Shown piece by piece: positions 218 to 9,496 of a stretch of DNA of 64,000 bases (position 1 is the stretch's first letter; every line of letters begins with the position of its first letter). The translations under genes were made by a program, and so were the position numbers. This stretch comes from Amycolatopsis sacchari (lineage in GTDB: Bacteria > Actinomycetota > Actinomycetes > Mycobacteriales > Pseudonocardiaceae): the NCBI RefSeq assembly GCF_900114035.1, contig NZ_FORP01000017.1, forward strand, positions 62,001 to 126,000, given 5' to 3'. The notes beneath the pieces are model-generated. The model saw only the letters and a program-made list of their open reading frames with translations. It was not told where the DNA came from and did no database searches.

Positions 218-877
218 TTACGCCTCCTCCCGCTCCCGGAACCTCCGTACCCGTTCCTCCAGGTCGTCGGCGTCGTACTCGGGGCTGCGGAAGCCTGAGA
301 TCAGCGTCGCGCAGTACTCCCTCGACAGGAACTCCGCGTTCCACTCCCCGCCGGGCTTCGCCCACTGGTAGGTGTGGTTGTGCATGTTCAGGAACTGCAG
401 CATGGCCAGCCGGGGATCGAGTTCGCGGAAGGCACCCGTCTTCATCGCGGCGATCAGCAGGTCCTGCACGATCTTCTCGAACTCCCGGCGCTGGCGCAGC
501 AGCCGTGCCCGGTTCGCGCCCCTCAGGTGCCGGTAGTCGTGCTCGTAGACCCAGATGTGGTCGAGCCGCGCGAGAATGAGCTCCAGCAGGGTCTGTGACA
601 GCAACCGCAGCCGCAGCACCGGATCCTCGTCGAGCGCCGCGATGCGCCGGGCGGCGGTGAGCAGTGGCCGCAGCACCCGGTCCTGGATCTCGACGAGCAG
701 GTTCTCCTTCGAGCCGATGTAGTAGTACAGCGCGCCCTTCGCCAGGCCGGCCACCTGGCCGATCTCGGCGATGCCCGTGGCGGCGTAGCCCTGCCTGGCG
801 AACAGTTCGGCGGCCTGGTCGATGATCTGCTGACGCTTGATCTCGTAACCCGGCCCGTGGCCCGGTGGTCTCGGCAT
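218..877 (-). CDS. TetR-family transcriptional regulator
   Basis: 219 residues, the normal TetR length. The N-terminal helix-turn-helix lies at about residues 14-60 (IIDQAAELFARQGYAATGIA followed by AGLAKGALYYYIGSKENLL). The rest is a helical ligand-binding and dimerisation domain of no recognised subtype. The gene is divergent from the hydantoinase-like operon that begins at 1062, with a 184-bp shared region carrying a palindrome at 1000-1027. By position it is the likely local repressor of that operon, probably released by a substrate or CoA thioester of the pathway. The ligand is not deducible from sequence. Confidence 0.9.
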   Translation of the reverse strand: MPRPPGHGPGYEIKRQQIIDQAAELFARQGYAATGIAEIGQVAGLAKGALYYYIGSKENLLVEIQDRVLRPLLTAARRIAALDEDPVLRLRLLSQTLLELILARLDHIWVYEHDYRHLRGANRARLLRQRREFEKIVQDLLIAAMKTGAFRELDPRLAMLQFLNMHNHTYQWAKPGGEWNAEFLSREYCATLISGFRSPEYDADDLEERVRRFREREEA

Positions 878-999
878 GGCTCAACAGCCTATCGGCCCCT
901 CCCGCCCCCCGGGAGAAGAGTCCACTTCGTCCCCCGCGCTCTCACCCGGTACGGGCTTGTCAGTCCGCCGCCCCGAGCCTTACAGTGCTTCCCGTCACC

Positions 1000-1027
1000 G
1001 TTTCGTAGACCGACTGGTACACGAAAC
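1000..1027. promoter_or_regulatory. Imperfect palindrome, candidate TetR operator
   Basis: Arms GTTTCGT (1000-1006) and ACGAAAC (1021-1027) are exact inverted repeats. Inside them ACC (1009-1011) and GGT (1016-1018) are also symmetric about the same centre. The element lies between the TetR gene and the operon starting at 1062, 35 bp from that start, where a repressor would block transcription. Binding by the local TetR protein is inference. Confidence 0.5.
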
Positions 1028-1061: not shown

Positions 1062-1328
1062 GTGAGTGATCATCAAACCGCTGTCCCGCAAGGGCTTTCC
1101 GTGCCCCGCGAAGAGGTCTCCGAAGCCGAGCTGCGGGAGCTGGGGGTCGACCTGGCGCGGGATTTCCCTGGCAGCACGGCCGCGGACTTCCGCCGTTACC
1201 CGGTGCTGTCCGAAGGCGGGTGGTTCCTCGCCGTGAAACACCAGAAAACGCTCGTCTCGGTAGCCCGCGAGCCGTGGCAGCTGCTCGGCCCGATCACCCT
1301 GACGTCCGACGGTCTCGACGTCTACTGA
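1062..1328 (+). CDS. Small acidic protein, first gene of the hydantoinase-like operon
   Basis: 88 residues from a GTG start; GGAG lies about nine bases upstream. I do not recognise the family. It has no cysteine, no signal peptide and no membrane segment. The C-terminal half (about residues 45-86: YPVLSEGGWFLAV, SVAREPWQLLGPITL) looks like a small globular domain. It is 16 bp upstream of the hydantoinase A-like gene. ATP-dependent acetone and acetophenone carboxylases contain a small extra subunit besides the A/B-like ones, so by position this could be the equivalent. However, the absence of cysteines argues against a cysteine-ligated zinc subunit. Confidence 0.75.
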   Translation: MSDHQTAVPQGLSVPREEVSEAELRELGVDLARDFPGSTAADFRRYPVLSEGGWFLAVKHQKTLVSVAREPWQLLGPITLTSDGLDVY

Positions 1329-1344
1329 GGAAGGAGAACCACCC

Positions 1345-3375
1345 ATGATCGGAGTAGACGTCGGCGGCACGTTCACGGACGTGGTGGCCATCGAGAACGG
1401 TGAGATCAAGACCGTCAAGGTCGCCACGGACGTGCGCACCACCGAACGCGGCGTGCTCAAGGGCGCCGAGGAGGCCGGGGTCAGCGCCGCGGAGGTGTTC
1501 AACCACGCCAGCACGCACGGGCTCAACGCCATCATCACCCGCCGCCTGCCCAAGATCGCCTTCCTCACCACCGACGGGCACCGCGACATCCTCGACATCG
1601 GCCGCACCTGGCGCCCGGTCGAGGGCCTGATGAACCCGGCGTGGCGCCGCTCCTACGGCGACGCGAACCGGCCGCTCGTGCCCCGTTACCTGCGCCGGGG
1701 CATCCGCGAGCGGCTCACCGCGGACGGCGGGGTGCTGATCCCGCTCGACGAGGAGCAGACGCGGGCCGAACTGGCCGTGCTGCGCCGCTGCGGCGTCGAG
1801 GGCGTGGCGATCTGCCTGCTCAACGCCTACGTCAACGACTCGCACGAGGAACGCCTGCGGCAGCTCGTGCACGAGGAGCTCGGTGACATCCCGGTGTCCA
1901 TCTCCAGCGAGGTCTCACCGCTGGCCAAGGAGTTCGCGCGCGCCTCCACCACCGTGATCGACGTGTTCATGCGGCTGATCTACGACGACTACACCCGGCG
2001 CCTCGACGCGGGACTGCGGGAACTCGGCTTCGCCGGGGACCTGAACTTCGCCGACTGCGCCGCCCAGCTCGTGCGCTCCGACGTCGCCATGGAGCACCCG
2101 TTCCGGATCGTGTTCGCCGGCCCCGCCGCGGGCACCGTGTCCAGCGCGCACTTCGGCGGCCTGATCGACGCCACCAACCTGCTCTGCGCGGACGTCGGCG
2201 GCACCTCGTGCGACATCAGCATGGTCACCGACGGCAAGCCGTTCGTGAACACGACGTTCGAGCTGGAGCACGACCTCATCGTCAACGCACTGTCCAATGA
2301 GGTCTCCAGCATCGGTGCCGGCGGCGGCAGCCTCGTCACGATCAGCCCCGCCGGCGAGCTGAAGGTCGGCCCCGGCAGCGCGGGCGCCGACCCCGGCCCC
2401 GCGTGCTACGGCATCGGCGGCACCCAACCGACGACCACCGACACCTGTCTGCTCATGGGCATCATCGACCCCGACGGGTTCGCGGGCGGCCGGATGAAGC
2501 TCGACCCGGAGCTGTCCCGCCGGGCGTTCGAGGCGCTGGACACGAAGCTGTCGTTCGAGCAGCGCGTGTCGTACGCCTTCAACATCGGCATCAACAACAT
2601 CGCCGAGGGCGTCACGAACATCGCCATCCAGCACGGCGTCGACCCGCGTGACTACAGCCTCGTCGCTTACGGCGCGGCGGGCCCGATGCTGCTGCCCGCG
2701 GTGCTCGACCTGGTGCACGCCGCCGAGGTCATCGTGCCGCCGCACCCCGGGCTGTTCTCCGCGCTCGGTCTGGTCAGCTCCGACCTCGTCTACGCCGACA
2801 GCCGCAGCGCGTACACGCTGCTGACCGCCGAAGCCGCCGAGTCGGTCGACAAGGTGTACCGGTCGATGGAGCAGCGGCTGACCGAGCGGCTGAAGGAGTC
2901 CGACCGCGGCAGGGTCACCTTCGTCCGCAGTTTCGACGGACGGCTGGCGGGCCAGACGTGGGAGACGCCGTTCATCGCGGTGCCCGACGGGGAGATCACC
3001 GCCGAGGGCGTCGAGCGGATGGTCGCGAACTTCCACGAGGCGTACGCCGAGCGCTCGGGCAACAAGTTCGAGGCGCTGCCGGTGCAGGGCGTGACCTACC
3101 GCGTGCAGGCCGTCGTGCACGCCGACAAGGTCGACTACCCGGTGCTGCCGGAGCGGCGTGCGGGCGAGAAGCCGGTGCCGACGCGCACACTCACGATCCG
3201 GTACCTCACCGGCGAGGACCTCGCGGCCGCCGAGTACCAGCGCGCGGACCTGCGTGCCGGGGACGAGATCCCCGGGCCCGCCGTGATCCGCGAGCCGTTG
3301 TCCACCACGTTCCTCGTGCCCGGCCAGACGGCGCACGTCGGGACCTACGGCGAACTGCGCATCCGCAAGGCGTGA
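1345..3375 (+). CDS. Hydantoinase A / acetone-carboxylase beta-like subunit (ATP-binding)
   Basis: 676 residues, usual for the HyuA family. It opens directly with the first phosphate-binding loop (IGVDVGGTFTDVV, residues 2-14). A second ASKHA-type motif (ADVGGTSCDIS) is near residue 282, and the C-terminal beta domain ends with a typical SYGELRIRKA-like strand (TYGELRIRKA). Family members use ATP to phosphorylate a substrate carbonyl or bicarbonate, in 5-oxoprolinase, N-methylhydantoinase, caprolactamase and acetone or acetophenone carboxylases. An AAGGAG ribosome site precedes the ATG. HyuB follows after 11 bp, so the two are co-translated. The neighbouring SDR and ligase genes favour a ketone carboxylase over a lactamase; that choice is inference. 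Confidence 0.9.
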   Translation: MIGVDVGGTFTDVVAIENGEIKTVKVATDVRTTERGVLKGAEEAGVSAAEVFNHASTHGLNAIITRRLPKIAFLTTDGHRDILDIGRTWRPVEGLMNPAWRRSYGDANRPLVPRYLRRGIRERLTADGGVLIPLDEEQTRAELAVLRRCGVEGVAICLLNAYVNDSHEERLRQLVHEELGDIPVSISSEVSPLAKEFARASTTVIDVFMRLIYDDYTRRLDAGLRELGFAGDLNFADCAAQLVRSDVAMEHPFRIVFAGPAAGTVSSAHFGGLIDATNLLCADVGGTSCDISMVTDGKPFVNTTFELEHDLIVNALSNEVSSIGAGGGSLVTISPAGELKVGPGSAGADPGPACYGIGGTQPTTTDTCLLMGIIDPDGFAGGRMKLDPELSRRAFEALDTKLSFEQRVSYAFNIGINNIAEGVTNIAIQHGVDPRDYSLVAYGAAGPMLLPAVLDLVHAAEVIVPPHPGLFSALGLVSSDLVYADSRSAYTLLTAEAAESVDKVYRSMEQRLTERLKESDRGRVTFVRSFDGRLAGQTWETPFIAVPDGEITAEGVERMVANFHEAYAERSGNKFEALPVQGVTYRVQAVVHADKVDYPVLPERRAGEKPVPTRTLTIRYLTGEDLAAAEYQRADLRAGDEIPGPAVIREPLSTTFLVPGQTAHVGTYGELRIRKA

Positions 3376-3386
3376 AGGGGACGACC

Positions 3387-5318
3387 ATGACTGTTTCACT
3401 GAAAGATCTCGACGACGCGCAGTTCGCGGAGCGGTACGGCGCCGACCGGTTCACCGCCTCCGTGCTCGCCAGCCGGATGCGCTACATCGTGCAGCACATG
3501 TGCACGGGGCTGCTGAACAACGCGTTCTCGCTGATCCTGCGTGACTGGTACGACTTCGCCGCGACGATCTCCGGCCCGCCGGAGCAGAACTACCCCATGT
3601 CGTCGGTGAGCAACAGCCTCGCGATGTTCCTCGGCACCATGTCGGAGGCCGTGCGCAACACGATCGAGGAGTACGGGCCGGAGAACCTGCGGCCCGGGGA
3701 TGTGGTGATCTGCAACGACCCCTACCGCGCCGGCAACCACGTCAACGACATCTGCTTCATCCGCCCCGTGTTCTCGGGGGAGCGGTTGATCTCGTTCGTG
3801 ACCCTGCGGGCGCACCAGCTCGACATGGGTGGGGTGGTGCCCGCGGGGTTCAGCGGCACCAAGCGCAACGTGTACGAGAACGGTCTCGTCATCGCGCCGA
3901 CGCTGCTCTACCGCGACGACAAGCCGGTCAAATCGGCGTTCAACCTGATCTTCGACAACGCCCGCTACTGCGCGCTGCTGCTGCCCGACATCAAGACGAT
4001 CTACGCGAACCTGCTGCTGGGCGAGCAGCTGATCCTGGAGAGCGTCGAGCGCTACGGCGTGGCCGCCTACCTCGGCGCGATCCGCTACAGCACCGACGTG
4101 TCCGCGGAGGCGATGCGCACCGCGCTGGCCGAGCTCCCGGACGGCGTGTACGAGGCAGAAGAGGGCATCGACTGCGACGGCATCGACGACTCCATCGAGT
4201 ACCGGATCAAGGTGCGGATCACCAAGGCGGGGCCGCGGATGGAGGTGGACTTCAGCGGTACGTCCCCGCAGGCCCGCACGAGCATCAACGCGGGCATCCT
4301 CGACACCAAGACCGCGGTCGGCGTCGCGCTGAAGTTCCTCATCGACCCGGTCACGCCCTTCACGTCGGGTGCCTACCGCGACATCGACATCGTGCTGCCC
4401 GCGGGCACGTTCATCAGCGCCACCCCGCCGGACGGCGCGGTGTTCCTCTACTGGGAGAGCACCGGCCCGGTGCTGCTCGCGGTGTTCCGGGCACTGGAAA
4501 AGGCGCTGGGCCGCAAGGCCGTGGGCGGCGACTACGGCTCGCTGAACATCCACAACGCCAACGGGGTCCTGGAGGACGGCACGCCCTGGGTCACCACCGC
4601 GCAGTGCGGCGGCGAGCACGGTCCGTGGGGTGCGACGGAAGCGGGTGACGCCGACAGCTACTCCGTGGTGTACCAGGCGAACAACCTCGACCCGGCCACC
4701 GAGGCGATCGAGTCGGAGCTGCCCGCGGTGGTGCTGCGGAAGGAGTACGTGGCCGACAGCGGCGGCGCGGGGACCAACCGCGGCGGCGCGGCGGTCATGA
4801 AGGACACGCTCTACCTCACGGCGGCCGAGCACTGGTCGAGCCCGTTGCACACCAAGCGCGCCAGCGGCGTGGGCGTCTACGGCGGCCGCAGCGGCGGGCT
4901 CGGCGCGACGTGGGTGTTCTCGCCCGACCACGTGGACGTGGTGCGCAGCAAGGACCTCATCCCCACCGGCGACGAGGTCTACGCGGGCGCCACTCCGGTC
5001 GCCGGCATGCTGGACCCCGAGACGAAGTGCGTCGACCCGGACGGGGAGTACTTCTACTTCGCCAGCACGCCGGTCTGGCACACGAAACCACGCGCGGTGT
5101 TCCGCTACCTCACCAACGGGGGCGGCGGCTGGGGCAAGCCCACCGACCGCGACCCCGAGCGCGTCAAGACCGACGTGCGTGATGAGTACGTGACGATCGA
5201 GGGCGCCTACCGCGACTACGGCGTGGTCATCACCGGCGACCCCCGCACCGATCCGGAGGGGCTGCGGGTGGACCTCGCGGCCACCGAGAAGCGCCGCGCC
5301 GAGATGGCCGCGCAGTAA
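3387..5318 (+). CDS. Hydantoinase B / acetone-carboxylase alpha-like subunit
   Basis: 643 residues from ATG 3387, which follows a GAAGGGG site. An in-frame extension further upstream only reads through the HyuA gene in another frame. Typical HyuB features are NDPYRAGNHVND near residue 110, a following RAHQLDMGG segment near 138, the conserved DFSGTSPQ near 290, and the glycine-rich NGGGGWG close to the end (about 577). HyuB is the obligate partner of HyuA and carries the hydrolase or carboxylase half-reaction. Together with the HyuA-like gene it should form a soluble cytoplasmic hetero-oligomer. Substrate unknown. Confidence 0.9.
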   Translation: MTVSLKDLDDAQFAERYGADRFTASVLASRMRYIVQHMCTGLLNNAFSLILRDWYDFAATISGPPEQNYPMSSVSNSLAMFLGTMSEAVRNTIEEYGPENLRPGDVVICNDPYRAGNHVNDICFIRPVFSGERLISFVTLRAHQLDMGGVVPAGFSGTKRNVYENGLVIAPTLLYRDDKPVKSAFNLIFDNARYCALLLPDIKTIYANLLLGEQLILESVERYGVAAYLGAIRYSTDVSAEAMRTALAELPDGVYEAEEGIDCDGIDDSIEYRIKVRITKAGPRMEVDFSGTSPQARTSINAGILDTKTAVGVALKFLIDPVTPFTSGAYRDIDIVLPAGTFISATPPDGAVFLYWESTGPVLLAVFRALEKALGRKAVGGDYGSLNIHNANGVLEDGTPWVTTAQCGGEHGPWGATEAGDADSYSVVYQANNLDPATEAIESELPAVVLRKEYVADSGGAGTNRGGAAVMKDTLYLTAAEHWSSPLHTKRASGVGVYGGRSGGLGATWVFSPDHVDVVRSKDLIPTGDEVYAGATPVAGMLDPETKCVDPDGEYFYFASTPVWHTKPRAVFRYLTNGGGGWGKPTDRDPERVKTDVRDEYVTIEGAYRDYGVVITGDPRTDPEGLRVDLAATEKRRAEMAAQ

Positions 5319-5328
5319 GGAGACCGCA

Positions 5329-5730
5329 GTGTCCTCTGTGGAACTGACCGAGCAGCAGCGGGAGCTGCGCGAGCGGTTCGTGTCCGAGCGCGGCTACTGG
5401 AACCAGTTCTGGGAGGGGCTGCTCAGCCTCGACCAGGAGTTCTTCGAGGCGTACCTGAATTTCTCCGCCGTGCCCTGGCGCAAGGGCGTGCTGGAGCCGA
5501 AGGTGCGCGAGCTGATCTACACCGCCATCGACGCCTCCACCACGCACCTCTACGAGCCCGGCCTGCGGCAGCACATCCGCAACGCGCTCGGCTACGGGGC
5601 GACGAAGGAGGAGATCATGGAGGTGCTGGAGCTGACGAGCGTGCTCGGCATCCACACGTGCACGCTCGGGGTGCCGGTGCTGATGGAGGAGCTCGCCGCG
5701 CACGAGCAGCGCAACGGCCGGCTGTCGTGA
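5329..5730 (+). CDS. Carboxymuconolactone decarboxylase (PcaC/AhpD-fold) family protein
   Basis: 133 residues, GTG start ten bases after hyuB behind AAGGAG. The CMD signature is clear at about residues 84-105: QHIRNALGYGATKEEIMEVL. It lacks the AhpD CxxC pair (only one cysteine, in IHTCT), so a peroxidase role is unlikely. It resembles the PcaC-type fold, whose members use an acid/base site on lactones or keto acids. In this operon it may act on a carboxylated or lactone intermediate, but no substrate can be assigned. Its last bases overlap the GTG of the next gene. Confidence 0.85.
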   Translation: MSSVELTEQQRELRERFVSERGYWNQFWEGLLSLDQEFFEAYLNFSAVPWRKGVLEPKVRELIYTAIDASTTHLYEPGLRQHIRNALGYGATKEEIMEVLELTSVLGIHTCTLGVPVLMEELAAHEQRNGRLS

Positions 5731-6467
5731 CCGGCGTGCTCGACGCGGGCGGTCCCGCCGGGATGCGCGGCCGCCGGGCCGTCGTCACCGGCGCCGCCCG
5801 CGGCATCGGGGCCGGGATCGCCCGTGAGCTGGCCGCCGCGGGCGCCGAGGTGACCGTTTTCGACCTGCGGGACCCGGCCGGAACGGTAACCGCCATCCGG
5901 GAAGCCGGTGGCCGGGCCACGGGCAGGACGCTGGACGTCTCGGACCGCGCCGCCGTCGAGGAGGCGTTCGGCGAGCTGCCCGGGCTCGACACCCTGGTCA
6001 CGTGCGCCGCGATCTACGGCGACACGGTGGCGGTCGACGAGCTGGGAGAGTCCGAAGTGGACGCGGTGCTGGGCGTGAACGTCAAGGGCACGCTGTGGTC
6101 GATCAAGGCCGCGCTGCCGTTGCTGCGGGACGGCGGCGGCACCGTGGTCTGCATCGGTTCGGTGGCGGGCAAGGTCGGCGGCGTGCTCGCCGGGCCGCAC
6201 TACGTCGCCAGCAAGGGCGCCGTGCACGCGCTGGTGAAGTGGCTCGCCAAAACCGAGGCGCGGCACGGCATCACCGCCAACGCGGTCGCCCCCGGCGTGG
6301 TGGACACCGACATGGTGGCGGGACGGGGCTACCGGCCGGATTACTGCCCGCTGGGCAGGCTCGCCCGGCCCGAGGAGATCGCGCGGGTCGCGGCGTTCCT
6401 CGCTTCGCCCGCCGCGAGCTACCTGACCGGCGCCGTGGTGGACGTCAACGGCGGCTACGCGATGTGA
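5727..6467 (+). CDS. Short-chain dehydrogenase/reductase (SDR) 1
   Basis: 246 residues from a GTG that overlaps the previous stop (GTGA), a sign of translational coupling. ATG 5763 is a possible later start. Classical SDR features are TGAARGIG at 21-28 for NAD(P) binding, catalytic Ser about 145, and Y159xxxK163 (YVASK). An acidic residue after beta-2 (FDLRD) suggests NAD(H) preference. It probably oxidises a secondary alcohol or reduces a ketone in the pathway served by the HyuA/B-like enzyme. Confidence 0.9.
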   Translation: MTGVLDAGGPAGMRGRRAVVTGAARGIGAGIARELAAAGAEVTVFDLRDPAGTVTAIREAGGRATGRTLDVSDRAAVEEAFGELPGLDTLVTCAAIYGDTVAVDELGESEVDAVLGVNVKGTLWSIKAALPLLRDGGGTVVCIGSVAGKVGGVLAGPHYVASKGAVHALVKWLAKTEARHGITANAVAPGVVDTDMVAGRGYRPDYCPLGRLARPEEIARVAAFLASPAASYLTGAVVDVNGGYAM

Positions 6468-6477
6468 GGAGGCAGGA

Positions 6478-7251
6478 ATGGACTGCGCTGTAGTCACCGG
6501 CGCCGCGTCCGGGATCGGGCGGGCGTGTGCGCTGCGCTTGGCGGAAAGCGGTTTCACCGTGGCGCTGCTGGACGTGGGCGACGCGGGGGAGACCCGTCGG
6601 CTGGTGGAGGAGCGGGGCGGCACGGCTGCCGGTTTCGCGGTCGACGTCACCGACGAGGCCGCCGTCGCCGGCGTCGTCGGGCGGCTGCCCGGCCCGCCCA
6701 GGGTGCTCGTCAACGCCGCGGGGATCATCATCCGCAAGAAGCTGCTGGAGACCTCGGTGCAGGAGTGGCGCCGGGTCGTCGACGTCAACCTCACCGGGTA
6801 CTTCGTCCTGCTGCGGCAGGTCATCCCGGCGATGGCCGCGGCAGGGGGCGGCTCCATCGTGCAGATCGCGTCGATCGCCGGTCACACCGGCTACGGCTTC
6901 TCGTCCTACACCGCGGCGAAGGGCGGGGTCCTCGCGCTGACCCGCCAGCTCGCCGCGGAACTGGCCGAGCAGGGCATCCGGATCAACTCGGTCAGCCCCG
7001 GGGTGGTCCACAGCGGACTGAACAGGGACACGCTGGGCAACGAGGTCATCCGCTCGGCCACGGTCGGCAACATCCCACTGGGCCGCATCGGCGAGCCCGA
7101 CGACATCGCGAAGGTCGTCGCGTTCCTCGCCGGGCCGGACGCGGCGTTCGTCACCGGTGCCGATCTGGTGGCCGACGGGGGCATGATCAGCACCATCCAC
7201 TGGGGCAAGGCCGGCGGCGAGCTGCACAGCTTCCACAGCAGGGAGGGTTGA
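6478..7251 (+). CDS. Short-chain dehydrogenase/reductase (SDR) 2
   Basis: 257 residues; a GGAGGCAGG site precedes the ATG. Motifs are TGAASGIG (7-14), NAAG (79-82), Ser132 and Y144xxxK148 (YTAAK), with LLDVGD after beta-2 pointing to NAD(H). It ends in a TGATG overlap with the acyl-CoA synthetase gene. It is distinct in sequence from SDR 1 and SDR 3, so three different redox steps or substrates are likely in one operon. Confidence 0.9.
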   Translation: MDCAVVTGAASGIGRACALRLAESGFTVALLDVGDAGETRRLVEERGGTAAGFAVDVTDEAAVAGVVGRLPGPPRVLVNAAGIIIRKKLLETSVQEWRRVVDVNLTGYFVLLRQVIPAMAAAGGGSIVQIASIAGHTGYGFSSYTAAKGGVLALTRQLAAELAEQGIRINSVSPGVVHSGLNRDTLGNEVIRSATVGNIPLGRIGEPDDIAKVVAFLAGPDAAFVTGADLVADGGMISTIHWGKAGGELHSFHSREG

Positions 7252-8762
7252 TGGACAACTTCGCCGGGGTGCTCGACCACAACGTCGGCCGTTACCCCGA
7301 CAAGATCGTGCTCACGCAGGGCGAGCGGCGGCAGACCAACCGGGAGTTCCTCACTCGCGTCAACGCGCTCGCGGCCGGGTTGCGGGAGCTGGGCATCGGC
7401 CGTGGGGACGTGGTGGCCCTGCTGCTGTACAACCACCTCGAGTTCCTGGAGGCGGTGTTCGCGCTCAACCGGATCGGGGCGGCGTTCCTCCCGCTGAACT
7501 ACCGGCTCTCACCCGCCGAGTGGGAGTTCATCCTCGGGCACGCCGAGGCGGCGGCGTTGCTGACCGAGCCGGAGTTCGCCGACGCGGTGTGCGGGATTCC
7601 CGTGCCGCGCAAGCTGTTGCTCGGCGGTTCCCGCGACGGCTGGGTGTCCTACGAGGACCTGGTAGCCGGGCACCTCGGGGAGAGCGTACCCGTCGAACCG
7701 GTGGGGCCGGACGACCTGCAGCGCCTGATGTACACCTCGGGCACCACGTCGCGGCCGAAGGGCGTGCGCATCACCCACACCAACCTGCTGGCCAAGAACC
7801 TCGGCCACATCGTGGAATTCGGCATCACGGGTGAGGACACCACGCTCGTCTGCGGTCCGCTCTACCACGTCGGCGGCCTCGATCTGCCCGGGCTCGGTAC
7901 CCTGCACGCGGGTGGTTCCCTGGTCGTGCTGCGGAAGTTCGACGCCCGCGAGGTGGTGGACACGATCGAACGCGAGCGCCCGACGAACGTGTGGCTCGCG
8001 CCGTCGATGATGAACGCCCTGCTCCAGCTGCCGGATCTCTCCCGGCGGGACACGTCGTCGATCCGCTTCATCATCGGTGGCGGGGAGAAGATGCCGGTGC
8101 CGCTGGTGGAACGCATCCGCGCCGCGTTCCCGTCCGCGTGGTTCGCCGACGCCTACGGGCTCACCGAAACCGTCTCCGGCGACACGTTCAACGACCCCGG
8201 GCACATGCTGTCGAAGGTGGGGTCCGTCGGGCGGCCCGTGGTGCACCTTCGGGTGCGGATCGTGGACGAGCTGGGTGCCGAGGTGCCCGCCGGGCAGCTG
8301 GGCGAGATCACGTTGTCCGGACCGAAGGTGTTCGCCGGTTACTGGCGTGACGAGGAAGCGACGGCGAAGGCGTTGCGGAACGGGTGGTTCCACACCGGCG
8401 ACATCGGCCGCGTCGACGAGGACGGCTACCTCTACGTGGAGGACCGCAAGAAGGACATGATCGTTTCCGGGGGCGAGAACATCGCCACGCCCGAGGTGGA
8501 ACGCGTGCTGTACGAGCACCCGGACGTGGTGGAGGCCGCCGTCGTGGGCAAGTCCCACGAGCGGTGGGGCGAGGTGCCGCTGGCGTTCGTGGTGCTGCGC
8601 GCAGGCGCGGCGGTGACGGCGGAGGAGCTGGCGGCGTTCTGCCGCGCACGACTCGCGAAGTTCAAAGTGCCCGCGGAGATCCGGTTCCTCGACGAACTGC
8701 CACGCACGCCGTCGGGCAAGGTGCTCAAGCGCGACCTGCGGTCCCTGCCGGTGATCGCGTGA
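7251..8762 (+). CDS. AMP-forming acyl-CoA synthetase (fatty-acid/aryl-CoA ligase type)
   Basis: 503 residues from the ATG overlapping the SDR 2 stop. ANL-superfamily motifs: P-loop YTSGTTSRPKG at about 161-171, the YGLTET adenine motif near 302, HTGDIG near 381, and the PRTPSGKVLKR loop near 485 with the adenylation lysine. It activates a carboxylic acid to its CoA thioester with ATP in the cytoplasm. A ligase downstream of a HyuA/B pair parallels benzoylacetate-CoA ligase after acetophenone carboxylase in anaerobic ethylbenzene degradation. The acid here is unknown. Confidence 0.92.
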   Translation: MDNFAGVLDHNVGRYPDKIVLTQGERRQTNREFLTRVNALAAGLRELGIGRGDVVALLLYNHLEFLEAVFALNRIGAAFLPLNYRLSPAEWEFILGHAEAAALLTEPEFADAVCGIPVPRKLLLGGSRDGWVSYEDLVAGHLGESVPVEPVGPDDLQRLMYTSGTTSRPKGVRITHTNLLAKNLGHIVEFGITGEDTTLVCGPLYHVGGLDLPGLGTLHAGGSLVVLRKFDAREVVDTIERERPTNVWLAPSMMNALLQLPDLSRRDTSSIRFIIGGGEKMPVPLVERIRAAFPSAWFADAYGLTETVSGDTFNDPGHMLSKVGSVGRPVVHLRVRIVDELGAEVPAGQLGEITLSGPKVFAGYWRDEEATAKALRNGWFHTGDIGRVDEDGYLYVEDRKKDMIVSGGENIATPEVERVLYEHPDVVEAAVVGKSHERWGEVPLAFVVLRAGAAVTAEELAAFCRARLAKFKVPAEIRFLDELPRTPSGKVLKRDLRSLPVIA

Positions 8763-9496
8763 TCGGTTTCGACCTGACCGGGCGCACGGCGTGGGTGACG
8801 GGTGCGGGCAAGGGCCTCGGCCGCGCGATCGCGCGGGGCCTCGCCGCGGCGGGCGCGAGGCTGGTGCTCACCTCCCGCACCCGCGCCGATCTCGAGGACC
8901 TGGCCGCGGAGCTGGGGGAGGGCACGCTCGTCCTGCCCGGCTCCGTCGCCGATGCCGGGTTCGCGGACGAGTGCGCCGAGCGCATCGGGCACCTCGACGT
9001 GCTCGTCCACTGCGCCGGGATCAGCCCGACGTTCAAGCGCAGTGAGCGCGTGACCGACGAGGAGTGGCAGCAGGTGCTGCGCGTCAACCTCGACGGGACG
9101 TGGTTCTGCTGCCGCGCCGCCGGGCGGCGGATGCTGGAACGGGGCGGGGGCAGCATCGTCACCGTCTCGTCCGTGCACGGCACGACGGGCTTCGAGCGGA
9201 TCGCGGCGTATGCGGCGAGCAAGGGCGGGGTCGAGGCGCTGACCCGGGTGCTGGCGGTGGAGTGGGCCGACCGCGGCGTGCGCGTGAACGCCCTCGCGCC
9301 CGGCTACTTCGCCACCGACCTGTCCGGCGGGCTGATGGCGAGCCGCTGGGGCGAGGTGATCCGCCGCGGCGTGCCGCAGGGGCGGATCGGCGCGGCGGAT
9401 GAGCTGGCGGGCGCGGCTGTCTTCCTGGCGAGCGACGCCTCGTCGTACGTCACCGGCACCACCCTCTACGTCGATGGTGGCTGGACGGCGCACTAG
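8759..9496 (+). CDS. Short-chain dehydrogenase/reductase (SDR) 3
   Basis: 245 residues, GTG start overlapping the ligase stop (GTGA). Motifs are TGAGKGLG (14-21), the NAAG equivalent HCAG, Ser138 and Y151xxxK155 (YAASK). After beta-2 the sequence is TSRTR, with arginines that usually indicate NADP(H), unlike SDR 1 and 2. It resembles gluconate-5-dehydrogenase or 3-oxoacyl reductase-like SDRs. It is the last gene of the 1062-9496 operon; its TAG overlaps tail-to-tail with the tiny minus-strand ORF at 9493. Confidence 0.9.
   Translation: MIGFDLTGRTAWVTGAGKGLGRAIARGLAAAGARLVLTSRTRADLEDLAAELGEGTLVLPGSVADAGFADECAERIGHLDVLVHCAGISPTFKRSERVTDEEWQQVLRVNLDGTWFCCRAAGRRMLERGGGSIVTVSSVHGTTGFERIAAYAASKGGVEALTRVLAVEWADRGVRVNALAPGYFATDLSGGLMASRWGEVIRRGVPQGRIGAADELAGAAVFLASDASSYVTGTTLYVDGGWTAH

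What the first reader, a model, noticed from the sequence alone, without database searches (positions are those of the whole stretch)
1062..9496. Possible ketone-carboxylation and CoA-activation operon in an actinomycete
Seven overlapping or closely spaced downstream genes after a small first ORF combine a HyuA/HyuB pair, a small cysteine-free protein, a CMD-fold protein, three different SDRs (two with NAD-type, one with NADP-type features) and an AMP-forming CoA ligase. Hydantoinase or caprolactamase operons do not need SDRs plus a CoA ligase. The set matches secondary alcohol oxidation (SDR), ATP-dependent carboxylation of the ketone (acetophenone/acetone carboxylase are HyuA/B relatives) and CoA-activation of the resulting beta-keto acid, as in anaerobic ethylbenzene degradation. 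An aerobic actinobacterial version with a CMD-fold partner would be new to me. Substrate unknown.
Basis: partly seen in the sequence, partly recalled or inferred. Interest (0 to 1): 0.7.

Follow-up and report, generated by a model that had tools for sequence, protein, structure and literature searches.

The report
Three-subunit HyuA/HyuB enzyme in CoA pathway
A soil actinomycete (Amycolatopsis-like) carries a tightly conserved gene set for breaking down an unknown carbon compound, built around an ATP-using enzyme that probably adds bicarbonate to a ketone; its third small subunit belongs not to the known ketone carboxylases but to a zinc-ribbon type otherwise seen in a different family of CO2-handling enzymes, and here it has lost its zinc-binding cysteines.

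Summary
The eight-gene operon (1062-9496) is real and conserved. The core is a three-gene unit: small protein, HyuA, HyuB. The small protein was present in all 46 loci of this HyuA clade examined (Actinomycetota, Pseudomonadota, Acidobacteriota, Bacillota, Desulfobacteraceae) but in only 1 of 15 other HyuAB loci. Distant homologues of it are four-cysteine zinc ribbons. They resemble VdcD, the activator subunit of vanillate decarboxylase, and are not detectably related to the gamma subunit of acetone/acetophenone carboxylase. The window's copy has lost all four cysteines. HyuA and HyuB trees place the clade on its own deep branch, outside Apc/Acx and outside the N-methylhydantoinase group. SDRs and CoA ligases accompany it significantly more often than they do control HyuAB pairs. 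A palindromic operator occurs only twice in the 7.6 Mb genome, before this operon and before neighbouring Zn-ADH/acyl-CoA dehydrogenase/enoyl-CoA hydratase and E1 genes, which indicates one TetR-controlled pathway. Most likely function: ATP- and bicarbonate-dependent carboxylation of an SDR-derived ketone, followed by CoA activation (about 0.45). An ATP-dependent hydrolase is not excluded. Substrate unknown.

The parts
218..877 (-). TetR-family regulator, divergent from the operon; orthologue travels with the cluster (64% identical in Pseudonocardia dioxanivorans)
   Evidence: PF00440 2.5e-14 and PF17932 2e-23; BLASTP 64% over 214 aa; cluster c4
957..986 (+). promoter-like TTGTCA-18-TACAGT
   Evidence: scan (1 found, 0.4 expected); conserved in alignment of upstream regions; function not tested
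1000..1027 (.). palindromic operator-like site GTTTCGTAGACCGACTGGTACACGAAAC, probably bound by the TetR
   Evidence: near-identical in Amycolatopsis, Prauserella, Sciscionella, Thermocrispum; only 2 motif hits in the host genome, both in this cluster, 0 in the reversed control
1062..1328 (+). small (gamma) subunit, 88 aa, cysteine-free derivative of a VdcD-like zinc ribbon
   Evidence: present in all 46 clade loci; Cys4 homologues; VdcD similarity; AF2 three-stranded sheet, pLDDT 87
1345..3375 (+). HyuA (alpha), ASKHA-type ATP-dependent kinase subunit
   Evidence: PF01968/PF05378/PF19278; ATP motifs intact; tree
3387..5318 (+). HyuB (beta), metal-site subunit (D56/H118/D121/H143 conserved)
   Evidence: PF02538; motif alignment; tree
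5329..5730 (+). CMD-fold protein without CxxC; closest solved relative is an uncharacterised Burkholderia double CMD (2q0t)
   Evidence: PF02627 2.9e-12; PDB search; 67-68% identical tandem copies beside the Neobacillus homologue
5727..6467 (+). SDR1, NAD-type, most widely retained SDR of the set
   Evidence: PF13561 7.6e-49; orthologue-like hits 43-86% in many clade loci
6478..7251 (+). SDR2, NAD-type
   Evidence: PF13561 3.8e-59
7251..8762 (+). AMP-forming acyl/aryl-CoA ligase
   Evidence: PF00501 5e-86, PF13193; nearest solved: fatty-acyl/feruloyl-CoA synthetase 8weu/8wev
8759..9496 (+). SDR3, NADP-type
   Evidence: PF13561 1.5e-63; SRTR motif read from sequence

Best explanation
The operon encodes the middle of a TetR-controlled catabolic pathway for an unidentified nitrogen-free alcohol/ketone. 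SDRs oxidise a secondary alcohol to a ketone. A heteromeric alpha-beta-gamma enzyme then activates the ketone enol and bicarbonate with ATP in HyuA (alpha) and joins them at the metal site of HyuB (beta) to give a beta-keto acid. The AMP-forming ligase makes its CoA thioester. The divergently transcribed, co-regulated enoyl-CoA hydratase and acyl-CoA dehydrogenase (just upstream of the window) take it into beta-oxidation or hydrolytic ring cleavage. The small subunit is a degenerate VdcD-like zinc ribbon, probably a structural or allosteric activator docked on HyuB. Shown here: gene content, conserved three-subunit unit, intact ATP and metal motifs, separate phylogenetic branch, partner statistics, shared operator. 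Inferred: complex formation, carboxylation rather than hydrolysis, reaction order, TetR binding. Roles of CMD, Zn-ADH and the E1-type protein are not assigned; substrate unknown.
For: Small subunit in 24/24 non-redundant clade loci vs 1/15 control HyuAB loci, p=1e-9. Reverse search: 23 of 24 small-subunit hits in 61 genomes lie beside hyuA/hyuB and the 24th is a VdcD. SDR, ligase and ECH enrichment. Sister lineages L136, L147, L148 have Cys4 gamma plus a CoA ligase directly downstream. Desulfobacteraceae homologue lies with SDRs, two ligases and a thiolase-domain ORF. No N-metabolism families among the top neighbours. Motifs intact. Operator only at the two transcription units of this cluster, and in Pseudonocardia before the ligase and a BVMO, both ketone/CoA-type enzymes. 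Third subunit as in Apc/Acx, none in hydantoinases (PMC5214803). VdcD is a zinc-ribbon activator of a (de)carboxylase (PMC8379154).
Against: HyuA/HyuB branch away from Apc/Acx and share a side of the tree with hydrolases (midpoint root, long branches). The single best solved match is N-methylhydantoinase (336 vs 253 bits for ApcC). Small subunit not detectably homologous to Apc/Acx gamma. No thiolase in the host cluster. The CMD-fold protein could act on lactones or keto acids. The Desulfobacteraceae homologue sits in a sulfate-reducer lineage, for which ATP-costly ketone carboxylation has been argued unfeasible (PMC7888143). No residue is known that separates carboxylase from hydrolase (PMC5214803).
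Confidence: 0.45

Rival explanations
1. ATP-dependent hydrolase: HyuABgamma phosphorylates and hydrolyses a cyclic amide, imide or strained lactone (IaaCE, hydantoinase or caprolactamase-like), and the resulting acid is CoA-activated and degraded.
For: HyuA and HyuB are closer to N-methylhydantoinase and caprolactamase than to Apc/Acx. HyuAB lactamases can sit in CoA pathways (2-oxoindoleacetyl-CoA lactamase, PMC5214803). BVMO, which makes lactones, is co-regulated in Pseudonocardia.
Against: No amidase, carbamoylase, aminotransferase or nucleobase-transporter families among the top neighbour families. Known hydrolases are two-subunit without a small subunit. SDRs are strongly associated. Lactone hydrolysis does not need ATP (general chemistry).
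Confidence: 0.27
2. ATP-dependent carboxylation of a non-ketone enolisable or phenolic substrate (phenol/enol carboxylation analogous to phenylphosphate carboxylase), with the VdcD-like subunit reflecting shared aromatic (de)carboxylase chemistry.
For: Small-subunit similarity to VdcD. Nearest solved ligase is a feruloyl-CoA synthetase. One relative has an aromatic-ring hydroxylase-type FAD enzyme next to it (L047).
Against: No UbiD/UbiX gene seen in the cluster. SDR partners fit alcohol/ketone interconversion better. Subunit sharing need not mean shared substrate.
Confidence: 0.1
3. Loose catabolic island: HyuABgamma and the SDR/ligase set act in different pathways and merely sit together.
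For: Full 8-gene synteny is limited to near relatives; distant members keep only gamma-alpha-beta plus variable partners.
Against: Tight operon with overlapping genes, same operator for both transcription units and nowhere else in the genome, partner enrichment across phyla, ligase/CMD/two SDRs recur beside the Neobacillus homologue.
Confidence: 0.1

Closest known systems
Acetophenone carboxylase (ApcABCDE, Aromatoleum aromaticum; 5L9W)
   Same: HyuA-type alpha and HyuB-type beta with intact ATP and metal motifs; gene order small subunit-alpha-beta as in apcB-C-D; CoA ligase in the operon; secondary-alcohol dehydrogenation upstream of the ketone in the pathway
   Different: No alpha-prime or epsilon subunit; small subunit not detectably related to Apc gamma; HyuA/HyuB outside the Apc group in both trees
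Acetone carboxylase (AcxABC; 5SVB/5M45)
   Same: Three-subunit HyuAB-type complex plan with one ATP-binding subunit
   Different: Acx gamma (PF08882) is a different small protein, encoded downstream; host lacks PF08882; separate tree position; lower similarity (181 bits)
N-methylhydantoinase / caprolactamase / 5-oxoprolinase (7HK5, 6YRA)
   Same: Best phmmer match of HyuA and HyuB; same side of the tree
   Different: Those lack a small subunit; own clade with 100% support; no nitrogen-related neighbours. 5-oxoprolinase itself was not in the tree
VdcD (small subunit of vanillate/4-hydroxybenzoate decarboxylase VdcBCD; 7AE5)
   Same: CPxC...W.V..CxxCL zinc-ribbon pattern and three-stranded sheet in the small subunit's Cys4 homologues; only non-HyuAB genome hit of the small-subunit profile
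   Different: Partner is HyuAB, not UbiD; window copy lacks all four Cys and has a 12-residue insertion; below NCBIfam cut-off; different C-terminal tail
2-oxoindoleacetyl-CoA lactamase (IaaCE)
   Same: HyuAB enzyme inside a CoA-dependent catabolic pathway (PMC5214803)
   Different: No small subunit reported; acts on an N-heterocycle; not sequence-tested here

Membership tests
Hydantoinase/ketone carboxylase superfamily (HyuA/HyuB) | Pfam Hydantoinase_A/B domains with DxGGTxTD, DxGGT, GxxPGP and D/E-H-D-H metal tetrad | tested here: met
Acetophenone carboxylase (Apc) | Groups with ApcC/ApcD in trees | tested here: not met
   NCBIfam ApcC 260 vs cut-off 1500, ApcD 92 vs 1500
Acetophenone carboxylase (Apc) | Second HyuA-like subunit alpha-prime (ApcA) in the cluster | tested here: not met
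   only one HyuA in the operon; true Apc cluster L127 has it
Acetophenone/acetone carboxylase | Orthologous Cys4 gamma subunit (CxxC about 50 residues before CxxC, PF08882-like) | tested here: not met
   hhalign score 17.9 vs Cys-fixed permuted controls 15.4 +/- 3.8; no Pfam hit
Acetophenone/acetone carboxylase | ATP- and bicarbonate-dependent carboxylation of a ketone | not testable with these tools
   needs enzyme assay
Two-subunit hydantoinase/oxoprolinase/lactamase | HyuAB without a small subunit | tested here: not met
   small subunit in 46/46 clade loci
Two-subunit hydantoinase/oxoprolinase/lactamase | Falls inside the N-methylhydantoinase group or the caprolactamase equivalog | tested here: not met
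   separate clade; CapA 376 and CapB 178 vs cut-off 1000
VdcD family (small subunit) | NCBIfam NF041205 over cut-off with four Cys and a UbiD partner | tested here: not met
   8/13 Cys4 homologues match, best E 1.2e-4; the reported member scores 14 bits against a 30-bit cut-off; window copy has no match and no Cys; partner is HyuAB
VdcD family (small subunit) | Sequence resemblance beyond the Cys pattern (Cys4 homologues) | tested here: met
   hhalign prob 86.6, score 33.4 vs permuted max 25.6; blind genome hit to a VdcD; Foldseek rank 2 is 7ae5 VdcD but E 1.6, not significant
CMD / AhpD | AhpD-type CxxC peroxidase motif or PcaC equivalog score | tested here: not met
   no CxxC in the sequence; PcaC 20.6 vs 155.7 bits
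TetR regulator | TetR_N HTH domain | tested here: met

The most novel reading that the evidence does not exclude
A third, independent lineage of ATP-dependent, biotin-free carboxylases in the HyuA/HyuB superfamily, spread over several phyla, which recruited a VdcD-type zinc-ribbon activator instead of the Apc/Acx gamma subunit; in the Amycolatopsis branch the ribbon has dispensed with its zinc.
Probability: 0.38. Interest if true: 0.78.

Novelty: new variant of a known kind. Interest (0 to 1): 0.58.

Why it matters
Many HyuA/HyuB genes are annotated only as hydantoinase/oxoprolinase. This work marks off a branch recognisable by its small subunit and CoA-ligase/SDR company that is probably not a hydantoinase. 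If it carboxylates ketones, it would be a further biotin-free C-C bond former using bicarbonate, with one ATP-binding subunit and a compact 88-aa helper, in easily grown aerobes. The natural loss of the zinc site lets the long-open role of the small zinc subunit be tested by comparing Cys4 and Cys-free homologues. The shared VdcD-like helper would link two unrelated (de)carboxylase families.

Tried and rejected
The small subunit as an Apc/Acx gamma homologue: rejected as undetectable by PDB profile search, Pfam/NCBIfam and hhalign with permuted controls. Foldseek of the window small-subunit model found nothing useful, and the Cys4 model only a non-significant VdcD match. Simple membership in N-methylhydantoinase or caprolactamase: rejected by trees and cut-offs. 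Menthone/terpenoid and other literature searches gave no characterised member; sulfate-reducer ketone papers describe a different, formylation-type pathway. A phylum-wide small-subunit search found only one additional HyuA-linked hit, which suggests the system is sparse.
Full report
WHAT IS THERE. The eight genes are real, on the + strand, with 4-bp overlaps to 16-bp gaps: small protein 1062-1328, HyuA 1345-3375, HyuB 3387-5318, CMD 5329-5730, SDR1 5727-6467, SDR2 6478-7251, AMP-forming ligase 7251-8762, SDR3 8759-9496. The host is an Amycolatopsis-like genome (window = G000:C23:62001-126000; named near relatives are Amycolatopsis and Prauserella). HyuA keeps the ATP motifs and HyuB the metal ligands D56/H118/D121/H143, matching motifs described for CapAB, Apc and Acx (PMC8453981), so the enzyme should be active.

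A DISTINCT CLADE. HyuA has clear orthologues and close paralogues (64-94% identity); every other HyuA in 61 related genomes is at 37% or less, and the host has nine HyuA-like genes. A genome-collection scan added 25 loci from Prauserella, Pseudonocardia, Gordonia, Thermocrispum, Sciscionella, Rhodopila, Solirubrobacter, Acidobacteria, Gammaproteobacteria, Neobacillus and a Desulfobacteraceae MAG; Rhodococcus and Burkholderia plasmids carry it too. In a 72-row HyuA tree the clade has 100% SH-aLRT on a long stem. Apc plus Acx form another group (97), the N-methylhydantoinase structure lies in a third (98), and caprolactamase branches apart. An independent HyuB tree agrees. Both trees join the clade with three sister lineages (99). 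Caveats: quick search, midpoint root, long branches, reference rows reconstructed from PDB alignments, and no oxoprolinase, NS671 HyuA or IaaC among the references.

THE SMALL SUBUNIT. A small ORF lies next to hyuA-hyuB in all 46 clade loci (upstream of hyuA in 45, downstream of hyuB in L046) and in the three sister lineages. Among non-redundant loci it is 24/24 versus 1/15 for other HyuAB pairs (p=1e-9), and the one control is a sister lineage. Searching 61 genomes with the small-subunit profile gives 24 hits: 23 beside hyuA or hyuB, and one that reads as a VdcD. Distant homologues have CPxCG...KCQxCL; the window branch has FPGST...KHQKTL and a 12-residue insertion, so all four zinc ligands are gone while YPVLSEGGW...K...L...R...LGP is kept. 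The Cys4 state is present in the sister lineages and scattered through the clade; parsimony needs at least two changes on the tree, so the loss is probably derived. The Cys4 family resembles VdcD: NCBIfam VdcD matches 8 of 13 members (best 1.2e-4), and hhalign scores 33.4 against 15.8 +/- 4.0 (maximum 25.6) for 60 column permutations that keep the cysteines fixed. It does not detectably resemble Apc/Acx gamma (17.9 vs 15.4 +/- 3.8). AlphaFold2 gives a confident three-stranded antiparallel sheet for the window protein (pLDDT 87) and three longer strands for a Cys4 homologue; [quoted passage not shown] Foldseek lists VdcD second for the Cys4 model, but not significantly. Apc and Acx have a zinc gamma subunit and hydantoinases none (PMC5214803), so the clade shares the three-subunit plan with ketone carboxylases but with a different small protein. 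A true Apc-type cluster with canonical gamma sits in another Amycolatopsis (L127), which serves as a contrast.

COMPANY KEPT. The full set gamma-alpha-beta-CMD-SDR-SDR-ligase-SDR is confined to Amycolatopsis, Prauserella, Thermocrispum and Sciscionella (one Pseudonocardiaceae MAG lacks SDR2). Beyond them, partners vary but stay in one theme: SDR 20/24 vs 3/15 in controls (p=1.5e-4), ligase 15/24 vs 3/15 (p=0.02), SDR plus ligase or CoA-transferase 14/24 vs 1/15 (p=0.002), ECH 7/24 vs 0/15 (p=0.03). These p-values are uncorrected and the loci remain phylogenetically related. Neobacillus has tandem CMDs (67-68% identical to the window CMD), two SDRs, an ABC transporter and, about 9 kb away, a ligase 62% identical to the window's. 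The Desulfobacteraceae locus has SDRs, ligases and a thiolase-domain ORF. Of 132 other neighbours in 17 divergent loci, the top families are CoA-transferase III, alpha/beta hydrolases, aldehyde dehydrogenases, TetR, enoyl-CoA hydratases, MaoC and FMO/BVMO-type flavoproteins; nothing nitrogen-specific is in the top 25.

ONE REGULON. Outside the window, the host cluster continues upstream with a divergent Zn-alcohol dehydrogenase, acyl-CoA dehydrogenase and enoyl-CoA hydratase, and a fused E1 alpha/beta thiamine-type dehydrogenase. Between the TetR gene (218-877) and the operon lie a promoter-like site and a 28-bp palindrome (1000-1027) conserved across genera. A degenerate form of the palindrome, allowing 3 mismatches, occurs exactly twice in the 7.6 Mb host genome: here and at C23:60087-60114 between the two divergent upstream units; the reversed control has none. 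Of eleven other genomes, nine have two such places, one Pseudonocardia has one and P. kujensis none; in Pseudonocardia they precede the ligase and a BVMO-like gene and the TetR orthologue (64% identical) is there. These genes are therefore likely one pathway; TetR binding is inferred.

MECHANISM AND JUDGEMENT. The best reading is alcohol to ketone (SDR), ATP- and bicarbonate-dependent carboxylation (alpha-beta-gamma), CoA thioester (ligase), then acyl-CoA steps. Its weak point is the carboxylation step: phylogeny puts the enzyme nearer to hydrolases, no diagnostic residue is known (PMC5214803), and sulfate reducers are thought unable to afford this chemistry (PMC7888143). A hydrophobic residue (the Phe of FAGPAAG) in this clade takes the place of Asn269 of CapA and Asn282 of Apc alpha, which is suggestive only. 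The CMD protein, Zn-ADH and E1-type protein are unassigned. Hence confidence 0.45 for ketone carboxylase and 0.27 for an ATP-dependent hydrolase. High confidence (above 0.9) attaches to the observation itself and to the conserved three-gene unit; about 0.8 to the VdcD-like nature of the small subunit.

Noticed in passing
window 1000-1027 and G000:C23:60087-60114 (L048:6087-6114): Palindromic TetR-type operator present exactly twice in the host genome and at ligase and BVMO promoters in Pseudonocardia.
   Followed up: yes
L048:3099-8146 (host, just upstream of the window): Divergent Zn-ADH, acyl-CoA dehydrogenase, crotonase and fused E1 alpha/beta dehydrogenase gene conserved with the operon and sharing its operator.
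   Followed up: partly
L127:3393-11000 and L128 (G015, another Amycolatopsis): Two apparent acetophenone-carboxylase-type clusters (ApcA, C, D; canonical Zn gamma seen in L127) in the same genus.
   Followed up: partly
L084, L088 (G180, G143): HyuB-like proteins with an Acx/Apc-gamma-type cysteine domain fused at the C-terminus (PF08882 over cut-off inside long HyuB frames).
   Followed up: no
L092 (G000:C58:301631-301840): The host also encodes a genuine VdcD, so both kinds of small subunit coexist in one cell.
   Followed up: no
L074 and L075 (Rhodococcus plasmids): Plasmid-borne copies with a CoA ligase and a nitronate-monooxygenase-family gene directly upstream of gamma-alpha-beta.
   Followed up: partly
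L070:7158-7919 (Neobacillus): Two head-to-tail CMD homologues beside the Bacillota hyu cluster, echoing the tandem CMD protein 2q0t of Burkholderia.
   Followed up: no
L047:12963-13868 (G014): HMG-CoA-lyase-family gene (287 bits, over cut-off 246) and an aromatic-ring-hydroxylase-type FAD enzyme flank a divergent member of the clade, hinting at another substrate.
   Followed up: no
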